Shown piece after piece: positions 10,881-59,824 of a stretch of 64,000 bases of DNA (position 1 is the first letter of the stretch; each line of letters opens with the position of its first letter). The translations under genes were made by a program, and so were the position numbers. Below the pieces are notes generated by a model, which did not search any database, was not told where the DNA came from, and saw only the letters and a list, made by a program, of their open reading frames with translations. Source of the stretch: Gammaproteobacteria bacterium (GTDB taxonomy: Bacteria > Pseudomonadota > Gammaproteobacteria > Enterobacterales > Alteromonadaceae); assembly GCA_018222405.1 (NCBI GenBank), contig JAAFAI010000012.1, positions 1-64,000 on the forward strand. Reading direction: 5' to 3'.

Positions 10881-13800
10881 CTAGTTGTCTTCGATAAATT
10901 GTTCAAATTGCGCTATTAGTGCTGGCAACTGCAGAACGATACGCTCGTAAATCGCCTGCATGTCGTCTTTTGTCACAGTTTTCGCCTCATATTCGAGCTC
11001 AGTCAGCATTTCTTTCAGCGCGTTAGCACCAACATCAGCCGCGTTCCCCTTAAATGCATGGGCCATGAAGCGCACTTTTTCCCTGTCTTCAGCGTTGATT
11101 GCCTGCGCGAGCGTTGCCCGTTTTTCATGGCTTTCATTAATAAACAGTGACAGCAGCTTTTTGAGTAGCGTCTTATTGTTATCCAGACGCAGCAATGCTT
11201 CGTCACATTGCCAGATAATCTCCTCAGGCTCCTCATCATCTCGTTCAGTCCCCGTAGTCACATCGGTTAAGCGTAAACTGGCAGTTACCTTTTCCATAAA
11301 CTCACCCGAATCAATGGGTTTGGTCAGATAATTATTCATGCCAGCCTCATAACACTTCTCGCTCTCACCTTTCAGCGCGTTAGCCGTCATGGCAATAATC
11401 TGAACATCACTGTGCCCTTCACCAGCCTGTCCGTCCCGTATCGCTCTGGTAGCAGCATAACCATCAAGCACCGGCATATTGCAATCCATTAAAACCAGAT
11501 TGATATTCGGGTTATTGCGTAACTGCTCAATGGCGGCTTCACCGTTAACGGCGCTGTACACTGTTGGCCCGTACGGTTCGAGGATAAATTCAGCTACCTG
11601 GCGGTTAATCTCATTGTCATCAACAATTAAAATTTGTTTTGCACTAATATCCGCGGTCGCTAAAGCATGCCCACCGGGCATGTCAGAACTGCGTCGACTA
11701 TCGACAGTATTAACCGATAAGGGCGTTCTTTTTGCTCTGCTATCGATCACATTAGAGAGGAAAACAGACCGGTAGAGTGGCTGAATCAGAGTAGTAGCCT
11801 GCGGTAAACTGTGATCGGCATCCGATGCACTTTTGGCGATCACAAACAGGACTGGAAGCGGCTGTTCTTCTGCCACCCATTGCTGCCAGTAATGGGCAAA
11901 AGCACCATAATAGCTGCAGCTTTGTTCTACAAACAGATAAGAACAGGACAGGGCTTCGGCCTGAGATAGCAACCGGTTGTACCCCATTGGCTTTGCACCG
12001 TTACACACCAATAAGTGTTGCATCACCTGCTCCAACGGTTCACTCTCAATTACCAATCCAGCATTACAGTCTGCAAGCCGTGGCGTCTCTTCTTCTCTTA
12101 CTTGCCACAACTCAAGGGGAACCTTAATGGTAAATGTCGAGCCCGACTGTTCTTCAGATTCGACTGAAATCGTACCGTTAAGCAACTCCAGGATCTCCCG
12201 GCAAATCGATAATCCTAAGCCGGTGCCGCCATATCTGGCGGCAATAGTCTCATCGGCCTGGCTAAACGCCGCGAATAGTTTATCCTGATGTTCTGGTGCT
12301 ATCCCTTTGCCGGTATCGGCTACTTCAATTTCCAGACAGGCCTTATTATGTTCAACCTCGCTTCTGGCTGTTAGTAATATGTAGCCTTCAGCGGTAAACT
12401 TAATCGCATTACTGAGCACATTATTGATTACCTGAGTAAGCCGGTGCGGATCGCTGTGTACCAGAGTGAAATTTAACTCACTGGTATCAATGTAAAAACC
12501 CAGCCCTTTTTGGCTCGCCACCACCGACATGGTACTGGTGATACCCTCAATCAGTGCTTCCGGATTAAAATTCTGAAAATCCAACTCCAGTTTTCCGGCT
12601 TCAATTTTAGACAGATCAAGGATGTCGTTGATCAGGCGCTTAAGGTTATCCACACTACCTTCTGCCATGGTCAGCAGTTGTGATTGTCTGGTTGTGAGAG
12701 TCTCGCCACGTAGAAGTGTTGTCGCGCCTACAATACCATTAAGTGGTGTACGCATTTCATGGCTGATAGTAGAAATAAAGTTTGTTTTAAGCTGACTCAG
12801 TTCTAACGCTTCGTCACGGGCCTTTCTGAGCTCTTCGGTACGCAGCTCTACCTGCTGCTCCAGCTGACGGTTGCTCTCAGCGACATTCATCAGGCTTTCT
12901 TTTTCCAGCGTAATATCACGAATAACCACTGCATAAGCAGCCTCCGCCTGCGAATTATTAATTTTATTGACTTTGCAATGATACCACTTGCTGTTACCAA
13001 CGCTGCTCTGGTGATGCCATTCCACACCGTTCACCCCTGTCCCCAGATGTAACTCAAGCGACTCTGCCACTTCTACAGCGCCTATCTGGCGTAGCAAGTC
13101 GGTAAACTTCTGCTCGCTGCCGCTATTCTCCTCGAGCAAAAACATCCGTTCAAAAGCGTGGTTATAGGTATTCACGCGCCAATCCTGACCAACCGTAATA
13201 ACCGCATCCTCAGCTACGTCCACGGCCGCCTTCGCCTCCTCAGCTACCGCGAGTAGTTTGCTTAATCGCTGGTTATTGGTGCTAAGGTACTGCAGTGCAA
13301 ACACCGCAAACACCAGCACGGCGGCGAGTCCGGCCATCGACTCCACTCGCCGGGTCATCAACTGACCAAGGTAATAATCGTCGTCTACCAGCAAGTACAC
13401 ATGCAGCAGACCGGTTTCACCCGCAGCAACAAGAATACTTTTGCTTAATCCCAAACTAGACGTCCCGATGCCGGCACTAACATAGCGGACTAAACCAGCG
13501 ATCTTTGCGGTGTTAATCTTATACTCACTACTAAACTTGCGTTCTGGCGCAAGATCACGGCTAAATTTCAGTTCAGCCTCAGGGTGTTTAATAAAGTATT
13601 GCTCGTTATCGGTCAGTACAATATTCAGATGCTCTCCAATCAGCACATCTAGGTCATCAAGAAACTCTGAGACATCGATATTGGCTACCAGCGCACCAAA
13701 AAACTGACCATCGGAAAAAATGGGTAACGCCACGCGCAAAGTGGGTTGGTGAGGAAATGCGATCCGATCAAATTCACGATTCAAATCAATGTTCGACACA

Positions 13801-14354
13801 AAGAGTTGCTCTTTAGCAAGCAACTTCGTGCTGGTGAAATAATAGCGGTCACTTTTATCCTGCAGATAGCTTTCGCTAACGGCTGCAACCCTGCCGTTTT
13901 TGCGCTCTACCCTTATGGTCTCTTTGCCCTGCTGGTCAAGCAGGCGTAATTGGTAATAGGCCCGGTTATTTTCGACAAAACCGCGAAAGATATTGGAAAG
14001 CCGGTTCTGCCATTGTGCGGTGGTAGTATTATCCAGCGGATCCAGGCCGTTGTTGTTGGCCGCGCGGGTTAAGCCGCTAATTGGCGGGGTTGAATGCAAG
14101 AATAAAATGTCATCCCGATAAGAAGCGTATTCGTTTTTAATCAACGCTTCCACTTCCCGCAGGTTTATTTGCACATCTTCGACAACAGACTTGTTATAGG
14201 AAGCGGTAATATGGTGATCGGCAATCATTGCAACGACAATAATAATAAATGTTGCAATGACCGAATACACCCGGACTGATACTTTTTTCAAACGCTGACC
14301 CCTGTAGAGAGCTGTATACCCGATCTGGTCTTCGCACTGGTTGTGCGCAGTCAT
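10881..14354 (-). CDS. Hybrid sensor histidine kinase with HPt
   Basis: A 1157-residue inner-membrane sensor of BarA/ArcB-like layout. Order: transmembrane helix near 27-50, Cache-type periplasmic sensor to about 320, second helix 335-355, PAS near 378-490, HisKA with His near 531 (ISHEMRTPLNG), ATPase domain with NAIKFT, DTGKG and GGTGLGLS boxes, a degenerate receiver without acceptor Asp (about 770-880), an intact receiver (Asp near 954, LMDCNMP), and an HPt domain (AHAFKGNA, near 1100). It can run a full His-Asp-His relay; the last phosphate may go to the receiver proteins coded on either side. Confidence 0.93.
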   Translation of the reverse strand: MTAHNQCEDQIGYTALYRGQRLKKVSVRVYSVIATFIIIVVAMIADHHITASYNKSVVEDVQINLREVEALIKNEYASYRDDILFLHSTPPISGLTRAANNNGLDPLDNTTTAQWQNRLSNIFRGFVENNRAYYQLRLLDQQGKETIRVERKNGRVAAVSESYLQDKSDRYYFTSTKLLAKEQLFVSNIDLNREFDRIAFPHQPTLRVALPIFSDGQFFGALVANIDVSEFLDDLDVLIGEHLNIVLTDNEQYFIKHPEAELKFSRDLAPERKFSSEYKINTAKIAGLVRYVSAGIGTSSLGLSKSILVAAGETGLLHVYLLVDDDYYLGQLMTRRVESMAGLAAVLVFAVFALQYLSTNNQRLSKLLAVAEEAKAAVDVAEDAVITVGQDWRVNTYNHAFERMFLLEENSGSEQKFTDLLRQIGAVEVAESLELHLGTGVNGVEWHHQSSVGNSKWYHCKVNKINNSQAEAAYAVVIRDITLEKESLMNVAESNRQLEQQVELRTEELRKARDEALELSQLKTNFISTISHEMRTPLNGIVGATTLLRGETLTTRQSQLLTMAEGSVDNLKRLINDILDLSKIEAGKLELDFQNFNPEALIEGITSTMSVVASQKGLGFYIDTSELNFTLVHSDPHRLTQVINNVLSNAIKFTAEGYILLTARSEVEHNKACLEIEVADTGKGIAPEHQDKLFAAFSQADETIAARYGGTGLGLSICREILELLNGTISVESEEQSGSTFTIKVPLELWQVREEETPRLADCNAGLVIESEPLEQVMQHLLVCNGAKPMGYNRLLSQAEALSCSYLFVEQSCSYYGAFAHYWQQWVAEEQPLPVLFVIAKSASDADHSLPQATTLIQPLYRSVFLSNVIDSRAKRTPLSVNTVDSRRSSDMPGGHALATADISAKQILIVDDNEINRQVAEFILEPYGPTVYSAVNGEAAIEQLRNNPNINLVLMDCNMPVLDGYAATRAIRDGQAGEGHSDVQIIAMTANALKGESEKCYEAGMNNYLTKPIDSGEFMEKVTASLRLTDVTTGTERDDEEPEEIIWQCDEALLRLDNNKTLLKKLLSLFINESHEKRATLAQAINAEDREKVRFMAHAFKGNAADVGANALKEMLTELEYEAKTVTKDDMQAIYERIVLQLPALIAQFEQFIEDN

Positions 14355-52098: not shown

Positions 52099-52446
52099 AT
52101 GCTATTAACTATCCCTGAACGTTTAGCGGCCATTGATCCGGCCCCCAGAAAAGTCACCGCGGCAGAAGCTGCCAAAGAACGAGCGGAACTCAATGGCTTT
52201 GTGATTGATGTCAGAGAACCTGCGGAGCATGCTAACTCCCCAGCCAAGGGCGCAATTAATATTCCCCGCGGCGTACTTGAAATGAAAATGCTGGAACTGG
52301 TTAAGGATCCCGGCACACCAATTTTCCTGCACTGCGCCTCAGGTGCAAGGGCCATGCTCGCCGCCGAGCAGCTGGCAAAAATGGGCTATCAGCATATAGC
52401 CGTAATGACCTGCGACGTGCCAACCATTCAAAAGGCGTTTAACTAA
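52099..52446 (+). CDS. Single-domain rhodanese sulfurtransferase
   Basis: A 115-residue rhodanese. Active loop HCASGARA with the catalytic Cys, and VIDVREPAEHA and AINIPRG of the fold. It would move sulfane sulfur to a thiol or cyanide. Controlled presumably by the divergent two-cysteine ArsR repressor. No persulfide dioxygenase or SQR gene lies alongside. GAGGT precedes the start. Confidence 0.92.
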   Translation: MLLTIPERLAAIDPAPRKVTAAEAAKERAELNGFVIDVREPAEHANSPAKGAINIPRGVLEMKMLELVKDPGTPIFLHCASGARAMLAAEQLAKMGYQHIAVMTCDVPTIQKAFN

Positions 52447-52521
52447 TTGACTAACCGGTGTAAGCTCGCAAAAAACAATAAGCGGGCCATTTAAGGCAGT
52501 TTTTCGTGGAGTTTACCCGGT

Positions 52522-53433
52522 ATGTTAAAAGCAACCCTTGAACAGTGGCGCATGTTTAAGGCCGTCGTGGAAGCCGGCGGATTTAATCAGGCTGCTGAAC
52601 AGGTCCATAAAAGTCAGTCCAGCATTCACCATGCGGTGCAGAAACTCGAACACGCCCTGGATCTCACTCTGTTCCTCAATGAAGGGCGTCGTGTCACCCT
52701 GACCGAAGCCGGCGAGTTAATGTACCGCCGGGCCTGCTTTCTACTGGAAGAGGCCCACAAAGTCGAAAGTGTCGCCAGCAGCCTTACATCGGGCATTGAA
52801 ACCTATTTACGAGTGGCGGCAGATATTATTTTTCCGCCACAAATGCTCTATCACGCGCTAAATAAAGTGTCTCAGGAGTACCCGTTGCTGCGTATTGAAC
52901 TGATGGAAACGGTGTTGAACGGCGCCAACACCCTGCTCAAGGATGGTGACGTGGATATCGGTATTTCACCGTTTCCTTATCCCAATGGCTTCAGTGAAGA
53001 CCTTTGCGATATTGAGTTTATCGCCGTTGCCCATCCTAACCATCCATTACACAAGTTAAACCGCACGCTGAGCCTGGATGACCTTAAAAGTTACCGTCAG
53101 ATTGTGGTACGCGACTCTTCCACTGAGCGCAAGGCCGAGTCCGGCTGGCTCGGTGCGGAACAGCGCTGGACCGTGAGTCATGTGCGCACTTCTATCGATA
53201 TAATCAGTCAGGGCTTAGGGTTTGCCTGGTTACCCCTTGCAATTATTAGCGATAAACTTGAAGATGGCACTCTAAAGCCCTTACCCATGGAGCAGGGCGG
53301 ATTACGCAAAGCTATGCTCCACTTGTGCTTTGCCGACGGCGATCGGCTCGGTCCGGCTGCCCGGGCTTTCATTGGTGAGTTACGTTATCAAACCATGCTG
53401 CTACCCAGCGCCGACTCACTGGATAACAACTAA
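52522..53433 (+). CDS. LysR-family regulator
   Basis: A 303-residue LysR-type regulator with HTH MFKAVVEAGGFNQAAEQVHKSQSSIHHAVQKLE and an effector domain containing DVDIGISPFPYP and QGLGFAWLPLAII. It ends 92 bases before the phosphorelay operon on the same strand. It might be expressed with that operon, but the gap leaves room for a separate promoter. Target unknown. Confidence 0.9.
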   Translation: MLKATLEQWRMFKAVVEAGGFNQAAEQVHKSQSSIHHAVQKLEHALDLTLFLNEGRRVTLTEAGELMYRRACFLLEEAHKVESVASSLTSGIETYLRVAADIIFPPQMLYHALNKVSQEYPLLRIELMETVLNGANTLLKDGDVDIGISPFPYPNGFSEDLCDIEFIAVAHPNHPLHKLNRTLSLDDLKSYRQIVVRDSSTERKAESGWLGAEQRWTVSHVRTSIDIISQGLGFAWLPLAIISDKLEDGTLKPLPMEQGGLRKAMLHLCFADGDRLGPAARAFIGELRYQTMLLPSADSLDNN

Positions 53434-53525: not shown

Positions 53526-54860
53526 ATGTTAACCGTATTATTAGTGGATGATGACGCGGAGTTTACTGACGTTGCCTGCACAATCATCGAATTTCTTGGT
53601 CATGAAGTATTAACCGCGTCTACCCTCGCCGAAGCTCGCGAGTGGCTCTCTAAAGAATCATTTGACCATATCCTGTTGGATTTCATGTTACCCGACGGCT
53701 CAGGTCTGCACCTGATGGAATCGCTGCAGCCCGAGCGGAATACCCGCGTCACCCTGATCACCGGTCATCCTTCGGTAAAAGGGATCATCAAGGACATGTG
53801 TGGTCCGAACATTGATTATCTGGTAAAGCCCATTCAACGGGAAGATTTAGAGTCGGTACTGCAGGGCAAGAAGCAAGCTGTTAGTAAACGTTCAACCACT
53901 GCCATTACCAGGCATTTTGGTCAGCTTATAGGTGAATCAGCACCTATGCAGGAGCTTTACAAGCTAATTGGCCGGGTAAGTAAAACCAAAGCCAATGTGA
54001 TGCTGCTGGGTGAAAGTGGTGTGGGCAAGGAAGTGGTCGCTGCCGCGATTCATGAGGCGTCTGATTGTGAAGGTACGTATGTGGCCACCAACTGCGGCGC
54101 TTTTTCAAAAGAACTTATCGGCAGTGAACTTTTTGGCCACGAAAAAGGCGCGTTTACCGGTGCTGTAGGCCGCAAGGAAGGCGTTTTTGAGCAAGCAGAA
54201 AACGGCACTCTCTTCCTCGACGAAATTACCGAGATGCCCATCGACATGCAGCCCAACCTGTTGCGGGTACTGGAAAATAAAGTCGTGATCCGGGTTGGCG
54301 GCACCAAGGCAATGCCGGTAAATTGCCGGGTTGTTTCGGCAACAAACCGCAGCATGGAAGAAATCGCTGAAAGCAAAGTACTGCGTGAAGACATTTATTT
54401 CCGTCTAGCCGTCTTCCCCATTACCATCCCGCCGCTACGGGAACGCAAGGAAGATATTCCGCTCCTGGCAGAACACTTTATTAACCAGCTAAACGAAGAA
54501 AATGGCAGTCAGTTTCGCTGGCAGCCAGTGCAGCTGGAAAAACTGCAGACCTACGACTGGCCGGGTAACGTTCGCGAGCTGCGCCACTTTGTGCACCGCG
54601 CTGCCATTATGAGCGACCCGGAAGGCACCGATATCGAACTACCCAAAACCATTGAGTCACCGTTTGCCAAAAAGCAAACGCTGTCGACGGGGCTGAAGGC
54701 GGGCAGAACCATTGAAGAGGTCGAAAAAGAGTTAATTTACGCGACCTTAGAAAAAGTAGAAGGCAATAAAACCACTGCCGCAGAAATGCTTGGGATCAGT
54801 ACCAAAACCCTGTATAACCGGTTACATGCCTACGGCGACCTTAACAGTGATTCGGAATAA
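53526..54860 (+). CDS. NtrC-type sigma-54 response regulator
   Basis: A 444-residue regulator: receiver (LLVDDDAEF; acceptor Asp near 51 in ILLDFMLPDGSG; VKP lysine), AAA+ domain with Walker A GESGVGKE, the GAFTGA loop that contacts sigma-54, Walker B TLFLDEITEMP, arginine-finger region, and a Fis-type HTH (NKTTAAEMLGISTKTLYNRL). It activates sigma-54 promoters on phosphorylation. First gene of the tightly spaced signalling operon and its only DNA-binding output. Confidence 0.94.
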   Translation: MLTVLLVDDDAEFTDVACTIIEFLGHEVLTASTLAEAREWLSKESFDHILLDFMLPDGSGLHLMESLQPERNTRVTLITGHPSVKGIIKDMCGPNIDYLVKPIQREDLESVLQGKKQAVSKRSTTAITRHFGQLIGESAPMQELYKLIGRVSKTKANVMLLGESGVGKEVVAAAIHEASDCEGTYVATNCGAFSKELIGSELFGHEKGAFTGAVGRKEGVFEQAENGTLFLDEITEMPIDMQPNLLRVLENKVVIRVGGTKAMPVNCRVVSATNRSMEEIAESKVLREDIYFRLAVFPITIPPLRERKEDIPLLAEHFINQLNEENGSQFRWQPVQLEKLQTYDWPGNVRELRHFVHRAAIMSDPEGTDIELPKTIESPFAKKQTLSTGLKAGRTIEEVEKELIYATLEKVEGNKTTAAEMLGISTKTLYNRLHAYGDLNSDSE

Positions 54861-54866
54861 TACAAT

Positions 54867-55109
54867 ATGGATGAAGGGGAATTTGCACGATTACAACAGG
54901 CGGTGCACGACGCGCGCCGGCCATTAAATCGCATAACCATGCAGTCGGAATTGATTAAACTGGCTCTTGAAGGCGCCGTGCCAAAAGATAAAGCCATGGT
55001 GGCGCTGGATAAAATTATTGCCGGCAGCAAAGACTGCAGCGATAGCCTGAGTGATCTGGTAGCGCAGTTTTCTCCTCAGGCAAACGGTGAAGGCAGTCCG
55101 ATAGAATGA
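54867..55109 (+). CDS. Free-standing DHp (HisKA-like) protein
   Basis: An 80-residue protein that looks like a histidine kinase dimerization/phosphoacceptor hairpin on its own. Helix 1 carries an H-box QAVHDARRPLNRITMQ with His14; helix 2 is ALDKIIAGSKDCSDSLSDLV. No ATPase domain follows: the stop overlaps the next start by four bases. By analogy to Spo0B-like or HPt proteins it may shuttle phosphate between the receivers encoded around it. It may also be a regulatory decoy for kinase dimers. Confidence 0.7.
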   Translation: MDEGEFARLQQAVHDARRPLNRITMQSELIKLALEGAVPKDKAMVALDKIIAGSKDCSDSLSDLVAQFSPQANGEGSPIE

Positions 55110-56620
55110 AGACCATTATCCGCAATACAGCTTCTTCGATATTGCTGGTTACCCTGGTTATCATTGTTATTGCCGCCAACTCCACCTACACCATCCACAC
55201 CATGGATGAGCTGGCCTCTCTGGAACGGCGGTTATTTACTACCAACCAGGTTATTAACTCTATTAACACCCTGCACCTGGCCGTACTCAGAACAGAGTCT
55301 GGTCAGCGCGGTTTTTTACTCGCCGAGCGGGAGCGCTATTTAGTTGACTACGAAAAAACGCTCAACAAAGTCAACAACATCATAGAACAGGTAGAAGCCA
55401 ACGCCATTCGTTCGGACTTTTCTGAACAGGAAGTGCGACTGCAACAATTGGTAGCTCTCTCTAAAGCCAAGCTGTCAGAGCTTATCGAAACGGTCGAACT
55501 GGCGCGTCAGGGCCGCAAAGATGAAGCCATTGCCATTTTTGAGTCTGACGTTGGACTGGAATTCTACAACGAGTTTGAAGATGTGTTTGAACAAATTGCC
55601 GAAGAAGAATACAAAGTACAGGCACAGCACATTGATTCACTACTCACATTGCGTTCAGACTCAGTCACTAACCTGATTATCTCCTCACTGACCACCGGGC
55701 TGCTGGTGATCAGTATTTTCATGTTACTACGTATGAACATCCGCGAAACCATCCGCCACAGACGAGAATTGCAGCAACATAACCTGGTGCTTGAATCACG
55801 GGTAAAAGAACGTACCGTGGAGTTACAGGTTTACGCAGAAGAATTGTCACGCAGCAATCGCGAACTGGAAGATTTTGCCTTTGTTGCCTCCCATGATCTG
55901 CAGGAGCCCTTGCGCAAAATCCGCGCCTTTGGCAATCGCATCAGCACTGGCTACGAAGATGTACTGGATGAGCGTGGTCAGGACTTTCTGCGCCGCATGC
56001 TCAATGCCGCCGAGCGCATGTCCATGCTGATCAGTGATTTATTGTCATTCTCCCGGGTAACTACCCGCGGCAAAGACTTTGAGGATACCGATTTAAATAC
56101 GGTCGTTGCCTCGGTGTTGGAAGATCTCGAAATCACTATAGAAGAAAAGCAGGCAGAAATTCATTCCGACTCATTGCCGGTGATGAAAGCCGACGCTTCA
56201 CAAATGAGTCAGCTGTTCCTGAATTTGCTGTCTAATGCACTCAAATTTACCCAACCAGACCAGCCACCGGTTATTACTTTGCGCTATGAAGCTATCGATG
56301 CAGAGGAGGCAGAAAACCTTCATCTGTTGCCAGGCCTGAGCTGGTTTAAACTAACCTTACAAGACAATGGTATAGGCTTTGAACAAAGCTTTGCCGAAAA
56401 AATATTTGCGCCGTTCCAACGCTTACACGGGCGCTCAGAGTATAAAGGTACCGGAATCGGCCTGGCAGTATGCCGCCGCATCGTAGAGCGTCATAACGGC
56501 ACCATCGAAGCCTTTAGTGAGCCCGGCCAGGGCGCCAGGTTCGAACTGTATCTGCCAGAAGACGGCCAGCCGTTTACCAATTTGCAACAACAGGGAGTGA
56601 TAAGTCATGCCGAACAGTAG
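55106..56620 (+). CDS. CHASE3 sensor histidine kinase
   Basis: A 504-residue membrane kinase. Helix at 8-25, CHASE3 sensor (about 35-180, with RTESGQRGFLL), second helix near 190-208, coiled coil, HisKA with His near 263 (VASHDLQEPLRKI) and ATPase domain with NALKFT, DNGIGF and GTGIGLAVC. The HDLQEPLRKI style is that of bacteriophytochrome-type kinases, which pair with Rcp1-like single receivers, such as the one coded next. The two genes overlap by 14 bases. Confidence 0.93.
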   Translation: MKTIIRNTASSILLVTLVIIVIAANSTYTIHTMDELASLERRLFTTNQVINSINTLHLAVLRTESGQRGFLLAERERYLVDYEKTLNKVNNIIEQVEANAIRSDFSEQEVRLQQLVALSKAKLSELIETVELARQGRKDEAIAIFESDVGLEFYNEFEDVFEQIAEEEYKVQAQHIDSLLTLRSDSVTNLIISSLTTGLLVISIFMLLRMNIRETIRHRRELQQHNLVLESRVKERTVELQVYAEELSRSNRELEDFAFVASHDLQEPLRKIRAFGNRISTGYEDVLDERGQDFLRRMLNAAERMSMLISDLLSFSRVTTRGKDFEDTDLNTVVASVLEDLEITIEEKQAEIHSDSLPVMKADASQMSQLFLNLLSNALKFTQPDQPPVITLRYEAIDAEEAENLHLLPGLSWFKLTLQDNGIGFEQSFAEKIFAPFQRLHGRSEYKGTGIGLAVCRRIVERHNGTIEAFSEPGQGARFELYLPEDGQPFTNLQQQGVISHAEQ

Positions 56621-57059
56621 CTTACCCGTCACCATATTAATGGCCGATGACGATGAAGACGACAGATTGCTGGCGCTTGATGCGTTAAAAGAAGGCCGGG
56701 TACTTAACAATTTACACTGCGTTGAGGATGGTGTTGAACTGCTGGAGTATCTGCGCCGGGAGGGTAAATTTGCCGATCCTGCCACATCTCCCCGACCGAG
56801 TTTGATTTTGCTGGATTTGAACATGCCGCGCATGGATGGCCGGGAAGCCTTGCAGCACATCAAAGCCGACCCCAACTTACGCAGTATTCCGGTGGTTATC
56901 CTGACGACTTCGAAAGAAGAAGAAGATATGATCCGCGGTTATGATCTCGGCGCAGCCTCTTACATTACTAAACCGGTTAACTTTGAAGGACTGGTAGATC
57001 TGATGCGCGCTATCGGTCGCTACTGGATAGAATTTGTTGAACTCCCCCACAATGAATAG
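56607..57059 (+). CDS. Rcp1-like single-domain response regulator
   Basis: A 150-residue receiver without output domain. Acidic pocket ADDDEDDR, acceptor Asp70 in LILLDLNMPRMDG, TKPV lysine. The long loop before the Asp (REGKFADPATSPRPS) is typical for the Rcp1 group. Partner of the upstream CHASE3 kinase by overlap and family; phosphate could pass on through the DHp protein. Confidence 0.92.
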   Translation: MPNSSLPVTILMADDDEDDRLLALDALKEGRVLNNLHCVEDGVELLEYLRREGKFADPATSPRPSLILLDLNMPRMDGREALQHIKADPNLRSIPVVILTTSKEEEDMIRGYDLGAASYITKPVNFEGLVDLMRAIGRYWIEFVELPHNE

Positions 57060-57072
57060 GCATTGGTAACCC

Positions 57073-59031
57073 ATGACTGACCATGTTCGCATACTGCTGG
57101 TTGAAGATGACGAAGACGATTATTTTCTGACCGCCGACTCACTCTCGCAGTGTAAGTCGCCAGTATTCGAGCTGGTATGGGCCAAAACGGGTGAAGAGGC
57201 CATTGAGCACTTGCAAACGGATGCATTCGATTTATGCCTGCTCGATTACCTGCTGGGTCAGGAAAATGCCATGGACGTGCTGGAAAAACTCAAAGGTCTG
57301 TCCGTAACCATTCCGGTGGTAGTGCTCACTGGTCAGGCCGACAGTATTGTTGACGATAGGGTAATGCGCGCCGGTGCCGAAGACTTTTTAACCAAAGCCG
57401 AAATCGACACACCGCGTTTTATGCGGACTATTCGCTACGCGCTGGTACGTCGGGAAATTGAAACCGAGCGATTGGAGCGCAATCGCATCGAACAGCAAAA
57501 CAAAGCCAAGGATAAATTTCTCGCCCACCTTGGTCACGAACTCAGAACCCCGCTGGCCTCCATACTCGGTTATACCGAGCTGTTACTGGACAGTCCCGGT
57601 AATGAGCGAATTAACGCAGAACTCTCAACCATTTTTAATAACAGCAAACATTTGCTTAGCCTGCTCAACGATTTGCTGGATATGTCGCGGATCATGGCCA
57701 ACAAGTTAGAGCTGGTGCCACAAACGCTTAATCTGAACGGCTTTTTAACCGACCTTTATAGCCTGATGGTTATGCAGGCAAGTGAAAAAGGTCTGGTTTT
57801 AACCGTTAGCGCCAGTTCCCTAATCCCCGAATACATCAAGGTAGACCCTACCCGACTGCGGCAAATTCTGATCAATCTGGTTAATAACGCGATTAAATTT
57901 ACCGACACTGGCGAAGTGGCAATCAATGTTGAATTCGATAAAGACAGTGAGCGGGTTTGTTTTGCGGTAAAAGATACCGGTATTGGCATGCCGGCAGACA
58001 AGCTTGAAACCATTTTTAAACCTTTCGAGCAAATTGAGGATCTGATCCACGCTAACCATGGTGGCGCGGGTCTCGGACTGGCGATTTCCAATGAGTTAGT
58101 CAGCCGTATGGGTGGTCGAATTAATGTGGAATCGACCCAGGGCGAAGGCAGTCGCTTTTGGTTTTGTATCAATGCTATGGGCAGCACCGAACAGAATCTT
58201 ATCCGCCTGAACCTGGAAGCGCCGGAAAGCCCTCCCGCCCAATTTAAAATTAATCAACATCTCGACGGCCGGGTGCTGATAGTTGACGACTTACGAGAAA
58301 TTCGCCGCCTCACAGGCCGTTTAGTTAGCATGAGTCACGCTCAGGTAACCTATGCACAGAATGGTGCCGACGCACTGGAAAAAATACGCAGTGCAGAGCA
58401 TAACGGTGAGCCCTTTCACCTGGTGTTAATGGACATACATATGCCGGTGATGAATGGCATTGATTGTTTAAAGGCCATGCGCTCCTCCGGCATTCAAACA
58501 CCGGTAGTAGCCGTTACGGCAGCCAGTCGAAAGGGGCTCAGAGAATCTTTACTGGCCGAGGGTTTTGACAACGTGATAGCCAAACCTATCGATCGTAAAG
58601 ATTTAAGTGAAGTGCTCAGTACCTTTTTGTTACCAGCCACACAGCCATCTGCCCCGAAAGAAATTAGCACTGCTGAGCAGAAGTCGTCTTTACTGGTGGT
58701 GGAAGATGATGAAGACGCGGCCGAATTAATGTGCCTGCTGCTGAATTCATTAGGTTACGAAGCAGATATTGCACTCAATGGTCAACAGGCACTGAAAAAA
58801 GTGGCTAATGCCCCGGCACATTATACCCATGTGCTAATGGATCTGCATTTGCCCGATACCGACGGCTATGAGCTGACCGCAGCAATCGCTGAAGTTGCCC
58901 CCACCCTGAAAGTAACCATAATCAGTGGCGCCGAGCCGGATAAGGCCCGACTAGAGGGTTTACCCATTGCACAGGTTTTACTTAAGCCTGTAAGTAAAGC
59001 TGATCTGGCAGTGTTGAACTTTTGCAGCTAA
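57073..59031 (+). CDS. Hybrid kinase REC-HisKA-ATPase-REC-REC
   Basis: A 652-residue soluble hybrid kinase. First receiver 1-125 (Asp58 in LLDYLLG), HisKA with His155 (LGHELRTPLAS), ATPase domain about 260-375 (NAIKFT, DTGIGM, GGAGLGLAIS), then two receivers at about 395-510 (LMDIHMP) and 535-652 (LMDLHLPDTDG). It has no membrane segment and no known input domain besides its first receiver, so it may be switched by another kinase. Last gene of the operon. Confidence 0.93.
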   Translation: MTDHVRILLVEDDEDDYFLTADSLSQCKSPVFELVWAKTGEEAIEHLQTDAFDLCLLDYLLGQENAMDVLEKLKGLSVTIPVVVLTGQADSIVDDRVMRAGAEDFLTKAEIDTPRFMRTIRYALVRREIETERLERNRIEQQNKAKDKFLAHLGHELRTPLASILGYTELLLDSPGNERINAELSTIFNNSKHLLSLLNDLLDMSRIMANKLELVPQTLNLNGFLTDLYSLMVMQASEKGLVLTVSASSLIPEYIKVDPTRLRQILINLVNNAIKFTDTGEVAINVEFDKDSERVCFAVKDTGIGMPADKLETIFKPFEQIEDLIHANHGGAGLGLAISNELVSRMGGRINVESTQGEGSRFWFCINAMGSTEQNLIRLNLEAPESPPAQFKINQHLDGRVLIVDDLREIRRLTGRLVSMSHAQVTYAQNGADALEKIRSAEHNGEPFHLVLMDIHMPVMNGIDCLKAMRSSGIQTPVVAVTAASRKGLRESLLAEGFDNVIAKPIDRKDLSEVLSTFLLPATQPSAPKEISTAEQKSSLLVVEDDEDAAELMCLLLNSLGYEADIALNGQQALKKVANAPAHYTHVLMDLHLPDTDGYELTAAIAEVAPTLKVTIISGAEPDKARLEGLPIAQVLLKPVSKADLAVLNFCS

Positions 59032-59248
59032 CCCCTTGCAAGTTTTACACTGCCATTTTCTATAACTGTTAATCCTCACTTGCAGAAACCATAGTAAAAT
59101 CATAAATATCAAAAACTTATAATTTTCTATATTGATGGCATAAGCGTTGCACTCCTTCCTGTAAGCATTGGTTAAATTCGCTCGGTAACGGTCTCAACAA
59201 ACCTTTTCAACACCCGCTTACTGACGAAGACGCAAACAGGAAAACAAC

Positions 59249-59824
59249 ATGGACATACAACTATTAATCAGACTATTCAGCGATGCAGCGTTGATCAGAG
59301 CTTTGGTATTCGCTGTGGTAACCACTTGTATGCTAACCGGTTGCGCAGGTTCCGGATTAACAGCAACGCCCTATCAGGCGGCAGAGTCGGCCCGCGATGT
59401 AGGCTATTCATCACATCGACTGTCTGAGGGAAAATTTAAAATTCTTTACAAAGCTAATAGCGCAACCAGTGACGAAACCCTGGAACAATACAGCCAGCAA
59501 CGAGCAGAAGAGATTGGCCTGGAACGTGATTACAACTGGTATCGCATTGTATCAAGCGAGGCAGTAACTATGCCTTCAATGACCGATCAACAGGTGATAA
59601 CTGCCGCCCCTCAGTCTCAAACGGTTGATGGCGCAGTGACCGGCGATGTCACCGCTTCCAGTTTACCCTCTAATCAGCAGTGCACGGTATCCGGCTGTGA
59701 GCAGGTATCGACGCCTAATCCCGTTTCAGGCGATACGTCTGAAGCTGGCATGCAATACTATGCCATGACCATCCAGTATGGTCGCTTCGAACCGATCCCC
59801 GAAGACGCTATCGTACTGAGATAA
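59249..59824 (+). CDS. CC0125/CC1285-type lipoprotein
   Basis: A 191-residue lipoprotein with lipobox MLTGC near residue 32 after an unusually long N-region. The family part reads YSSHRLSEGKFKILYKANS, LEQYSQQRAEEIGLERDYNWYRIV. The C-terminal half is variable and holds two cysteines (QQCTVSGC). Function unknown; envelope location inferred from the lipobox. Confidence 0.8.
   Translation: MDIQLLIRLFSDAALIRALVFAVVTTCMLTGCAGSGLTATPYQAAESARDVGYSSHRLSEGKFKILYKANSATSDETLEQYSQQRAEEIGLERDYNWYRIVSSEAVTMPSMTDQQVITAAPQSQTVDGAVTGDVTASSLPSNQQCTVSGCEQVSTPNPVSGDTSEAGMQYYAMTIQYGRFEPIPEDAIVLR

What the first reader, a model, noticed from the sequence alone, without database searches (positions are those of the whole stretch)
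53526..59031. Five-gene phosphorelay operon with a DHp-only protein
Five signalling genes lie with gaps of 13 bases or less, or overlaps: NtrC-type regulator, DHp-only protein, CHASE3 kinase, Rcp1-like receiver, and a REC-HisKA-ATPase-REC-REC hybrid. Together they code five receivers and three phospho-acceptor histidine sites, with one DNA-binding output. The layout suggests two kinases feeding a single sigma-54 activator through a small carrier. I know no described system with this gene set.
Basis: partly seen in the sequence, partly recalled or inferred. Interest (0 to 1): 0.75.

Follow-up and report, generated by a model that had tools for sequence, protein, structure and literature searches.

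The report
Stress phosphorelay using a bare DHp
Marine bacteria of the Alteromonas group share a five-gene signalling relay in which a tiny two-helix protein probably hands phosphate from a kinase to a gene activator that appears to switch on envelope and stress genes.

Summary
In detail: five complete signalling genes in one tight run. The order recurs in 80 of 80 named loci read (the best 80 of 119) and in all 22 other order genomes with a stand-alone B among 394 searched. B is a real gene (median dN/dS 0.08) with an invariant histidine and no ATPase domain; in 79 of 80 operon copies the residue HisKA phosphatases need is gone. Seven B paralogues keep it, and all follow other receiver-output genes. 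Best reading: B is a minimal histidine phosphotransferase linking hybrid kinase E to sigma-54 activator A, like Spo0B or ChpT without the C-terminal domain. I also found a likely output: paired TGYAA-N3-TTACA sites mostly 80-130 bp before sigma-54-type promoters, beside the operon and elsewhere before CsbD and DUF1328 genes, suggesting an envelope/general-stress regulon. In the window itself this signal is weaker (one strong site). Phosphotransfer is inferred, not shown. Nine paper searches turned up no description.

The parts
53526..54860 (+). A: NtrC-type sigma-54 activator (REC, AAA+ with GAFTGA, Fis-type HTH)
   Evidence: Asp52, Lys101, GAFTGA Thr and Walker Lys invariant in 81 of 81
54867..55109 (+). 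B: 80-aa stand-alone DHp protein, phospho-His 14, no ATPase domain
   Evidence: HisKA E 0.0013, below cut-off; H invariant in 26 of 26 and 80 of 80; two-helix model pLDDT 88.4; dN/dS 0.076
55106..56620 (+). C: CHASE3 sensor histidine kinase
   Evidence: His, N-box, G1 Asp invariant in 81 of 81
56607..57059 (+).
   Evidence: Asp, Lys, Thr invariant in 81 of 81
57073..59031 (+). E: REC-HisKA-HATPase-REC-REC hybrid kinase
   Evidence: three receiver Asp/Lys pairs, His, Thr at +4, N-box, G1 invariant in 81 of 81
59037..59049 (.). putative enhancer (UAS) TGCAAGTTTTACA; only one strong copy in the window, where many relatives have two
   Evidence: no pair scoring 15 or more in the window
59136..59151 (+). 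putative sigma-54 -24/-12 promoter TGGCATAAGCGTTGCA
   Evidence: only match in the window, but 35 of 100 shuffles also have one or more (mean 0.42), so the weight lies in comparison: such a site lies in this position in 29 of 30 loci of the Alteromonas group
59249..59824 (+). predicted target: CC0125/CC1285-family lipoprotein
   Evidence: NF047637 E 1.7e-18; a homologue occurs in 29 of 29 group loci tested

Best explanation
A multistep phosphorelay. CHASE3 kinase C signals to hybrid kinase E through E's N-terminal receiver, with receiver D as a carrier or sink (inferred). E autophosphorylates and passes phosphate to one or both of its C-terminal receivers (inferred from domains). B, a dimer of bare DHp hairpins, takes it on His14 and gives it to Asp52 of A (inferred). 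A~P binds paired TGYAA-N3-TTACA enhancers and opens sigma-54 promoters of envelope and general-stress genes beside the operon and elsewhere (sites and spacing shown by comparison; binding inferred). B thus replaces the HPt or pseudo-kinase of other relays.
For: E carries two C-terminal receivers and none of the five genes has an Hpt match. B's histidine is invariant while the phosphatase residue at +4 is K 37, A 26, G 13, S 3, N 1 of 80 (R in the window); Thr/Asn there is required for HisKA phosphatase activity (PMC3510030, passages). Conservation is highest in helix 1 from the histidine on (0.89, against 0.40 before it and 0.66-0.67 after), the helix used to dock receivers (PMC3433190 and PMC9981736, passages). 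B paralogues directly follow other REC-output genes: a second NtrC type (L041, L217) and REC-GGDEF (L054, L055, L219); in L041, L054 and L055 hybrid kinases lie nearby, in L041 a phytochrome. All 33 family genomes with a C match below 1e-100 hold a stand-alone B (not adjacent in G775); of the 20 genomes listed without C, 17 were searched for B and one has it (G769, the three-gene variant). Tandem-site pairs scoring >=20: 51 at spacing 18-24 in 81 loci, against 6, 2, 4, 1 at control spacings and 2, 0, 2 in shuffles. Pseudoalteromonas, absent from the motif's training set, has site pair plus promoter before the same aldehyde dehydrogenase gene in 25 of 30 loci. A promoter-like site lies between A and divergent exoD in 18 of 20 loci with exoD and 1 of 9 without. 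CsbD is a predicted target in the window's genome and in Colwellia polaris.
Against: No biochemistry. The genome has nine Hpt matches elsewhere, so E could use one of those. Sequence alone gives no partner assignment. The seven B paralogues all have Asn at +4, the phosphatase-type residue, so loss of that residue is not a family trait; and in four of the seven (L217, L219-L221) no C- or E-like kinase lies within the 15 kb read. B's fold matches are weak (best E 0.25, to a designed protein). C-D-E also occurs without A-B beside it (L218). The window has one strong enhancer site and its best pair scores only 12.1; no pair of 15 or more was found in the window, L083, L087 or L133. Rheinheimera loci have tandem sites (5 of 6) but no promoter above threshold. 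Site pair plus promoter was found in 50 of 81 loci, not all. Exact single sites in the window's genome are hardly above control (26 against 20), nor are promoter-like matches (21 against 16).
Confidence: 0.56

Rival explanations
1. B is a brake: its DHp hairpin binds A's receiver (or pulls phosphate off it) and keeps the activator silent, while C or E phosphorylates A directly.
For: B is coded directly after A; DHp domains bind receivers; reversible transfer back to E would drain A~P; the seven paralogues keep Asn at +4, which could support phosphatase activity there.
Against: In the operon's own B the phosphatase residue at +4 is lost in 79 of 80 while the phospho-histidine is kept in all, which fits transfer better than dephosphorylation.
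Confidence: 0.23
2. B pairs with the DHp domain of C or E as a mixed dimer, changing kinase activity or specificity, and need not carry phosphate.
For: B lies just before C, with a 4-base overlap; DHp domains dimerise (established knowledge).
Against: B paralogues sit directly behind receiver-output genes rather than kinase genes; the invariant His would be unnecessary.
Confidence: 0.12
3. B is a decaying remnant of a histidine kinase without function.
For: Below the Pfam cut-off.
Against: dN/dS median 0.076; 80 of 80 synteny; invariant motif.
Confidence: 0.03

Closest known systems
Spo0B (Bacillus) and ChpT (Caulobacter): pseudo-histidine-kinase phosphotransferases
   Same: DHp hairpin with a phospho-His that takes phosphate from a receiver and gives it to another; dimeric four-helix bundle (PMC3433190, PMC9981736; passages).
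   Different: ChpT has a C-terminal ATPase-like domain and Spo0B a degenerate one (recalled); B ends after the hairpin. B is coded beside its presumed output receiver.
HPt proteins (PF01627), e.g. LuxU or the HPt of RcsD (examples recalled)
   Same: Same predicted place in the relay.
   Different: B matches HisKA, not Hpt.
PhyP/PhyT of the alphaproteobacterial general stress response
   Same: Relay through a degenerate kinase to a general-stress output (PMC5898713, passages).
   Different: That protein has the HRxxN motif of HWE/HisKA_2 kinases, a predicted membrane anchor and a degenerate ATPase domain; its output is EcfG, not sigma-54.
Census class 'phosphotransfer protein (HisKA or Hpt, no REC or HATPase)' as used with P2CS
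   Same: B fits this class; one HisKA phosphotransfer protein is counted in Azospirillum brasilense CBG497 (PMC4618731, passages).
   Different: A counting category; no function is described in the passages seen.
NtrC/AtoC/ZraR-type sigma-54 activators
   Same: A has every domain; they are among its top NCBIfam models.
   Different: A misses the curated cut-off of all 25 models shown of 98 (top three: 337-340 bits against 559-795); no dedicated NtrB-type kinase in the operon.

Membership tests
Pseudo-HK histidine phosphotransferase (Spo0B/ChpT kind) | DHp helical hairpin with conserved phospho-His | tested here: met
   fold match to HK853 DHp TM 0.71 over the query, but E only 0.29, and HisKA below its cut-off
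Pseudo-HK histidine phosphotransferase (Spo0B/ChpT kind) | C-terminal degenerate ATPase-like domain | tested here: not met
   80-aa ORF ends after the hairpin; gene C starts within its last codons
Pseudo-HK histidine phosphotransferase (Spo0B/ChpT kind) | carries phosphate between receivers | not testable with these tools
   needs purified proteins
HPt domain (PF01627) | Hpt profile match | tested here: not met
   one search lists only HisKA for B at E up to 1
HisKA sensor kinase | catalytic ATPase domain in the same protein | tested here: not met
   B
NtrC-type sigma-54 activator (A) | receiver, AAA+ with GAFTGA, Fis-type HTH | tested here: met
NtrC-type sigma-54 activator (A) | enhancers upstream of -24/-12 promoters of its targets | tested here: inconclusive
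   motif pairs strongly enriched near the operon; binding by A not shown; weak in the window itself
Hybrid-kinase multistep phosphorelay (C-D-E-B-A) | His-Asp-His-Asp flow | not testable with these tools
   acceptor residues conserved, flow not shown

The most novel reading that the evidence does not exclude
Bare DHp hairpins form a third class of histidine phosphotransferase beside HPt domains and pseudo-kinases: small portable adaptors, each coded next to the output receiver it serves (sigma-54 activators, diguanylate cyclases), which let hybrid kinases, a phytochrome among them, be wired to new outputs. In Alteromonadales one of them runs a sigma-54-driven envelope/general-stress response.
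Probability: 0.46. Interest if true: 0.75.

Novelty: new variant of a known kind. Interest (0 to 1): 0.62.

Why it matters
It would show that the DHp hairpin alone can serve as a phosphotransferase, where the examples I know carry a C-terminal domain, and would give a natural minimal part for studying and engineering phosphorelay specificity. It also predicts the control circuit and DNA code of a stress regulon in marine bacteria, with concrete sites and targets to test.

Tried and rejected
A strict full sigma-54 consensus (12 of 13) found 6 matches in 81 loci, as many as in shuffled DNA; the shorter core -24/-12 pattern was informative. An exact 5-mer dyad search for the enhancer was nearly uninformative (top count 4 of 54 against 2-3 in shuffles); the motif was seen by eye in the listed sequences and then modelled from a typed seed. 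Its matrix was trained on 54 upstream regions, mostly of the Alteromonas group, so those loci are not independent tests; no Pseudoalteromonas region was in the training set. Pair counts count registers, so one place can count more than once. Rosetta-stone fusions of B: class hits outside the window's genus lie in ORFs of 173 aa or more; I could place 8 of those 16, and they show ordinary HisKA-type H-boxes (their domains were not scanned). Sequence search of solved structures gave no DHp match for B. A search for close A homologues gave only two genomes of the window's genus among 369 of the class at 1e-125. C matches of 1e-62 to 1e-70 covering only the kinase part (G772, G789, G807, G829) were left out of the 33-genome count; none of the four has a stand-alone B. 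G773, G774 and G776, listed without C, were not searched for B.

Papers: searches found no description of this operon or of a working bare DHp protein; the library lacks most subscription journals, so this is weak evidence of novelty. Six papers were seen as passages, the rest as search listings.
Full report
WHAT IS THERE. Domain scans give an NtrC-type activator (A), a HisKA-only 80-aa protein (B; E 0.0013, below Pfam's cut-off), a CHASE3 kinase (C), a single receiver (D) and a REC-HisKA-HATPase-REC-REC hybrid (E).

CONSERVATION. B matches in 26 of 394 order genomes; three of those (G092, G198, G238) match only inside longer ORFs, leaving the window's genome and 22 others with a stand-alone B. 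All 22 have A-B-C-D-E in order (A and E split into two ORFs in L047, E in L050). A scan of named genomes gave 119 confirmed places; the best 80 were returned and all 80 show A-B-C-D-E. Median gaps there, with ORFs taken from the first start codon, are 15, 20, -1 and 16 bases, with maxima of 213, 78, 53 and 233. The named genera are Alteromonas, Salinimonas, Aestuariibacter, Pseudoalteromonas, Rheinheimera, Arsukibacterium, Paraglaciecola, Aliiglaciecola, Colwellia, Cognaticolwellia and Thalassotalea. In 369 class genomes, hits apart from the window's own genus lie in ORFs of 173 aa or more.

B AS A PROTEIN. The H-box reads HD-x-R-x-PLN in most operon copies; the histidine is kept in 26 of 26 and 80 of 80. 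Position +4, Thr/Asn in HisKA phosphatases (PMC3510030, passages), is K 37, A 26, G 13, S 3, N 1; it is R in the window. The acidic residue at +1, needed for kinase activity in that paper, is kept in 78 of 80. The AlphaFold2 model has two helices, 3-34 and 40-68 (pLDDT 88.4); after a designed protein, its lowest E-value match is the DHp of HK853 bound to RR468 (TM 0.71 of query, 1.6 A, 25% identity, but E 0.29). Selection is purifying.

B PARALOGUES AND VARIANTS. A second stand-alone DHp follows a different NtrC-type gene in L041, with a phytochrome hybrid kinase (PAS_2-GAF-PHY-HisKA-HATPase-REC) and a heme oxygenase beside it. Others follow an NtrC-type gene in L217 and REC-GGDEF genes in L054, L055 and L219; L220 and L221 look the same by length and by receiver similarity to D, but were not scanned. 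Hybrid kinases lie within 4 kb of B in L054 and L055, but none with likeness to C or E lies in the 15 kb read around L217, L219, L220 and L221. All seven paralogues have Asn at +4; the five linked to REC-GGDEF (L054, L055, L219) or REC-GGDEF-like genes (L220, L221) have Asn or Ser instead of the acid at +1. In L216 the set is A-B plus one CHASE3-HisKA-HATPase-REC-REC protein, without C, D or the N-terminal receiver: a fusion that removes the C-D-REC1 steps and keeps the kinase, two receivers, B and A. In G775 C-D-E stands behind an MscS-type channel gene, and A'-B lies on another contig. All 33 family genomes with a C match below 1e-100 also have a stand-alone B.

OUTPUT. Downstream of E, a -24/-12 match (at least 10 of 11) lies in 29 of 30 loci of the Alteromonas group (window, L058-L085, L113), against about 0.04 expected per locus from the overall density; over all 81 loci there are 35 such + strand hits in 33 loci. 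The one miss, L064, is also the only one of 29 group loci tested that lacks the three small genes found in the other 28. The window lacks those genes too but keeps promoter and lipoprotein. The first small protein has a weak DUF883 C-terminal match in L033 (below cut-off) and none in L058; likeness to the YqjD/YqjE/YqjK set of E. coli is my recollection. Before these promoters lies a palindromic site TGYAA-N3-TTACA, often doubled at 18-24 bp (or about 32 bp in some Alteromonas). Pairs scoring 20 or more: 51 against 1-6 at control spacings and 0-2 in shuffles. Site pair plus promoter (looser thresholds) was found in 50 of 81 loci.

TARGETS. Near the operon: small-protein/lipoprotein operon (Alteromonas group); aldehyde dehydrogenase in 25 of 30 Pseudoalteromonas loci; hemerythrin (L098, L105, L136), BON and DUF2383 proteins (L092), PagL (L099); OmpA-like porin in Rheinheimera, with sites but no promoter above threshold. 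A protein like the first small protein of Alteromonas is again the target in L115 (Paraglaciecola). Divergent exoD: a promoter-like match facing it in 18 of 20 loci that have it, 1 of 9 that do not. Genome-wide, tandem sites with up to 3 mismatches: 27 against 10 controls in 12 genomes, 11 against 5 in 11 genomes (the window's genome gave 0). Of 18 loci read, 8 have a promoter-like match 40-180 bp away: four of these sites lie in operon loci already held (L263, L264, L272, L273; the last three before BON genes), and four do not (L260 BON, L261 CsbD, L268 DUF1328, L270 small lipoprotein-like ORF without Pfam match). From, L281 is a beta-barrel porin of the kind seen in Rheinheimera. In the window's own genome a single site plus promoter at 91 bp precedes a CsbD gene on another contig (G000:C19); that was 1 of 15 loci read out of 26 sites, another (L294) having only a poor candidate. 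BON, CsbD and DUF883 proteins are stress or stationary-phase genes elsewhere (recalled).

MECHANISM. Shown: gene set, order, residues, B family, motif pairs. Inferred: C to E (REC1/D), E to B, B to A, A at the enhancers. Phosphotransferases of multistep relays are described as HPt or pseudo-kinase (PMC9981736, passages); B would be a bare-DHp third form. Rivals (brake, mixed dimer, relic) are set out above.

VERDICT. Real, conserved, and not described in the papers searched. New variant of a known kind; interest 0.62.

Noticed in passing
L041:266-5337: Phytochrome hybrid kinase and heme oxygenase genes beside an NtrC-type gene followed by its own 63-aa stand-alone DHp: a likely light-to-sigma-54 relay.
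   Followed up: partly
L054:6650-7903, L055:4667-5920, L219:7304-8560: REC-GGDEF gene directly followed by a 72-73-aa stand-alone DHp gene: bare DHp linked to c-di-GMP output; these copies lack the acid at +1 and have Asn at +4 of the H-box.
   Followed up: partly
L216:5187-8839: Three-gene version: NtrC, DHp, and a CHASE3-HisKA-HATPase-REC-REC fusion.
   Followed up: partly
L218:4727-12902: C-D-E module behind genes for an MscS-type channel, an MMPL protein and MlaA, without A-B.
   Followed up: no
window 52099-53433: Rhodanese-like and LysR genes before the operon are conserved with it in most Alteromonas-group loci.
   Followed up: no
L047, L050: A and/or E split into two ORFs in two genomes; real breaks or draft-sequence errors.
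   Followed up: no
L134:5952-6971 and L041:13711-14748: REC proteins with a weak Hpt match (below cut-off) near the operon or its paralogue; the one in L134 lies behind a tandem enhancer-like site.
   Followed up: no
window 10881-14354: 1157-aa ORF with an Hpt domain match: a possible alternative HPt source in the same window.
   Followed up: no
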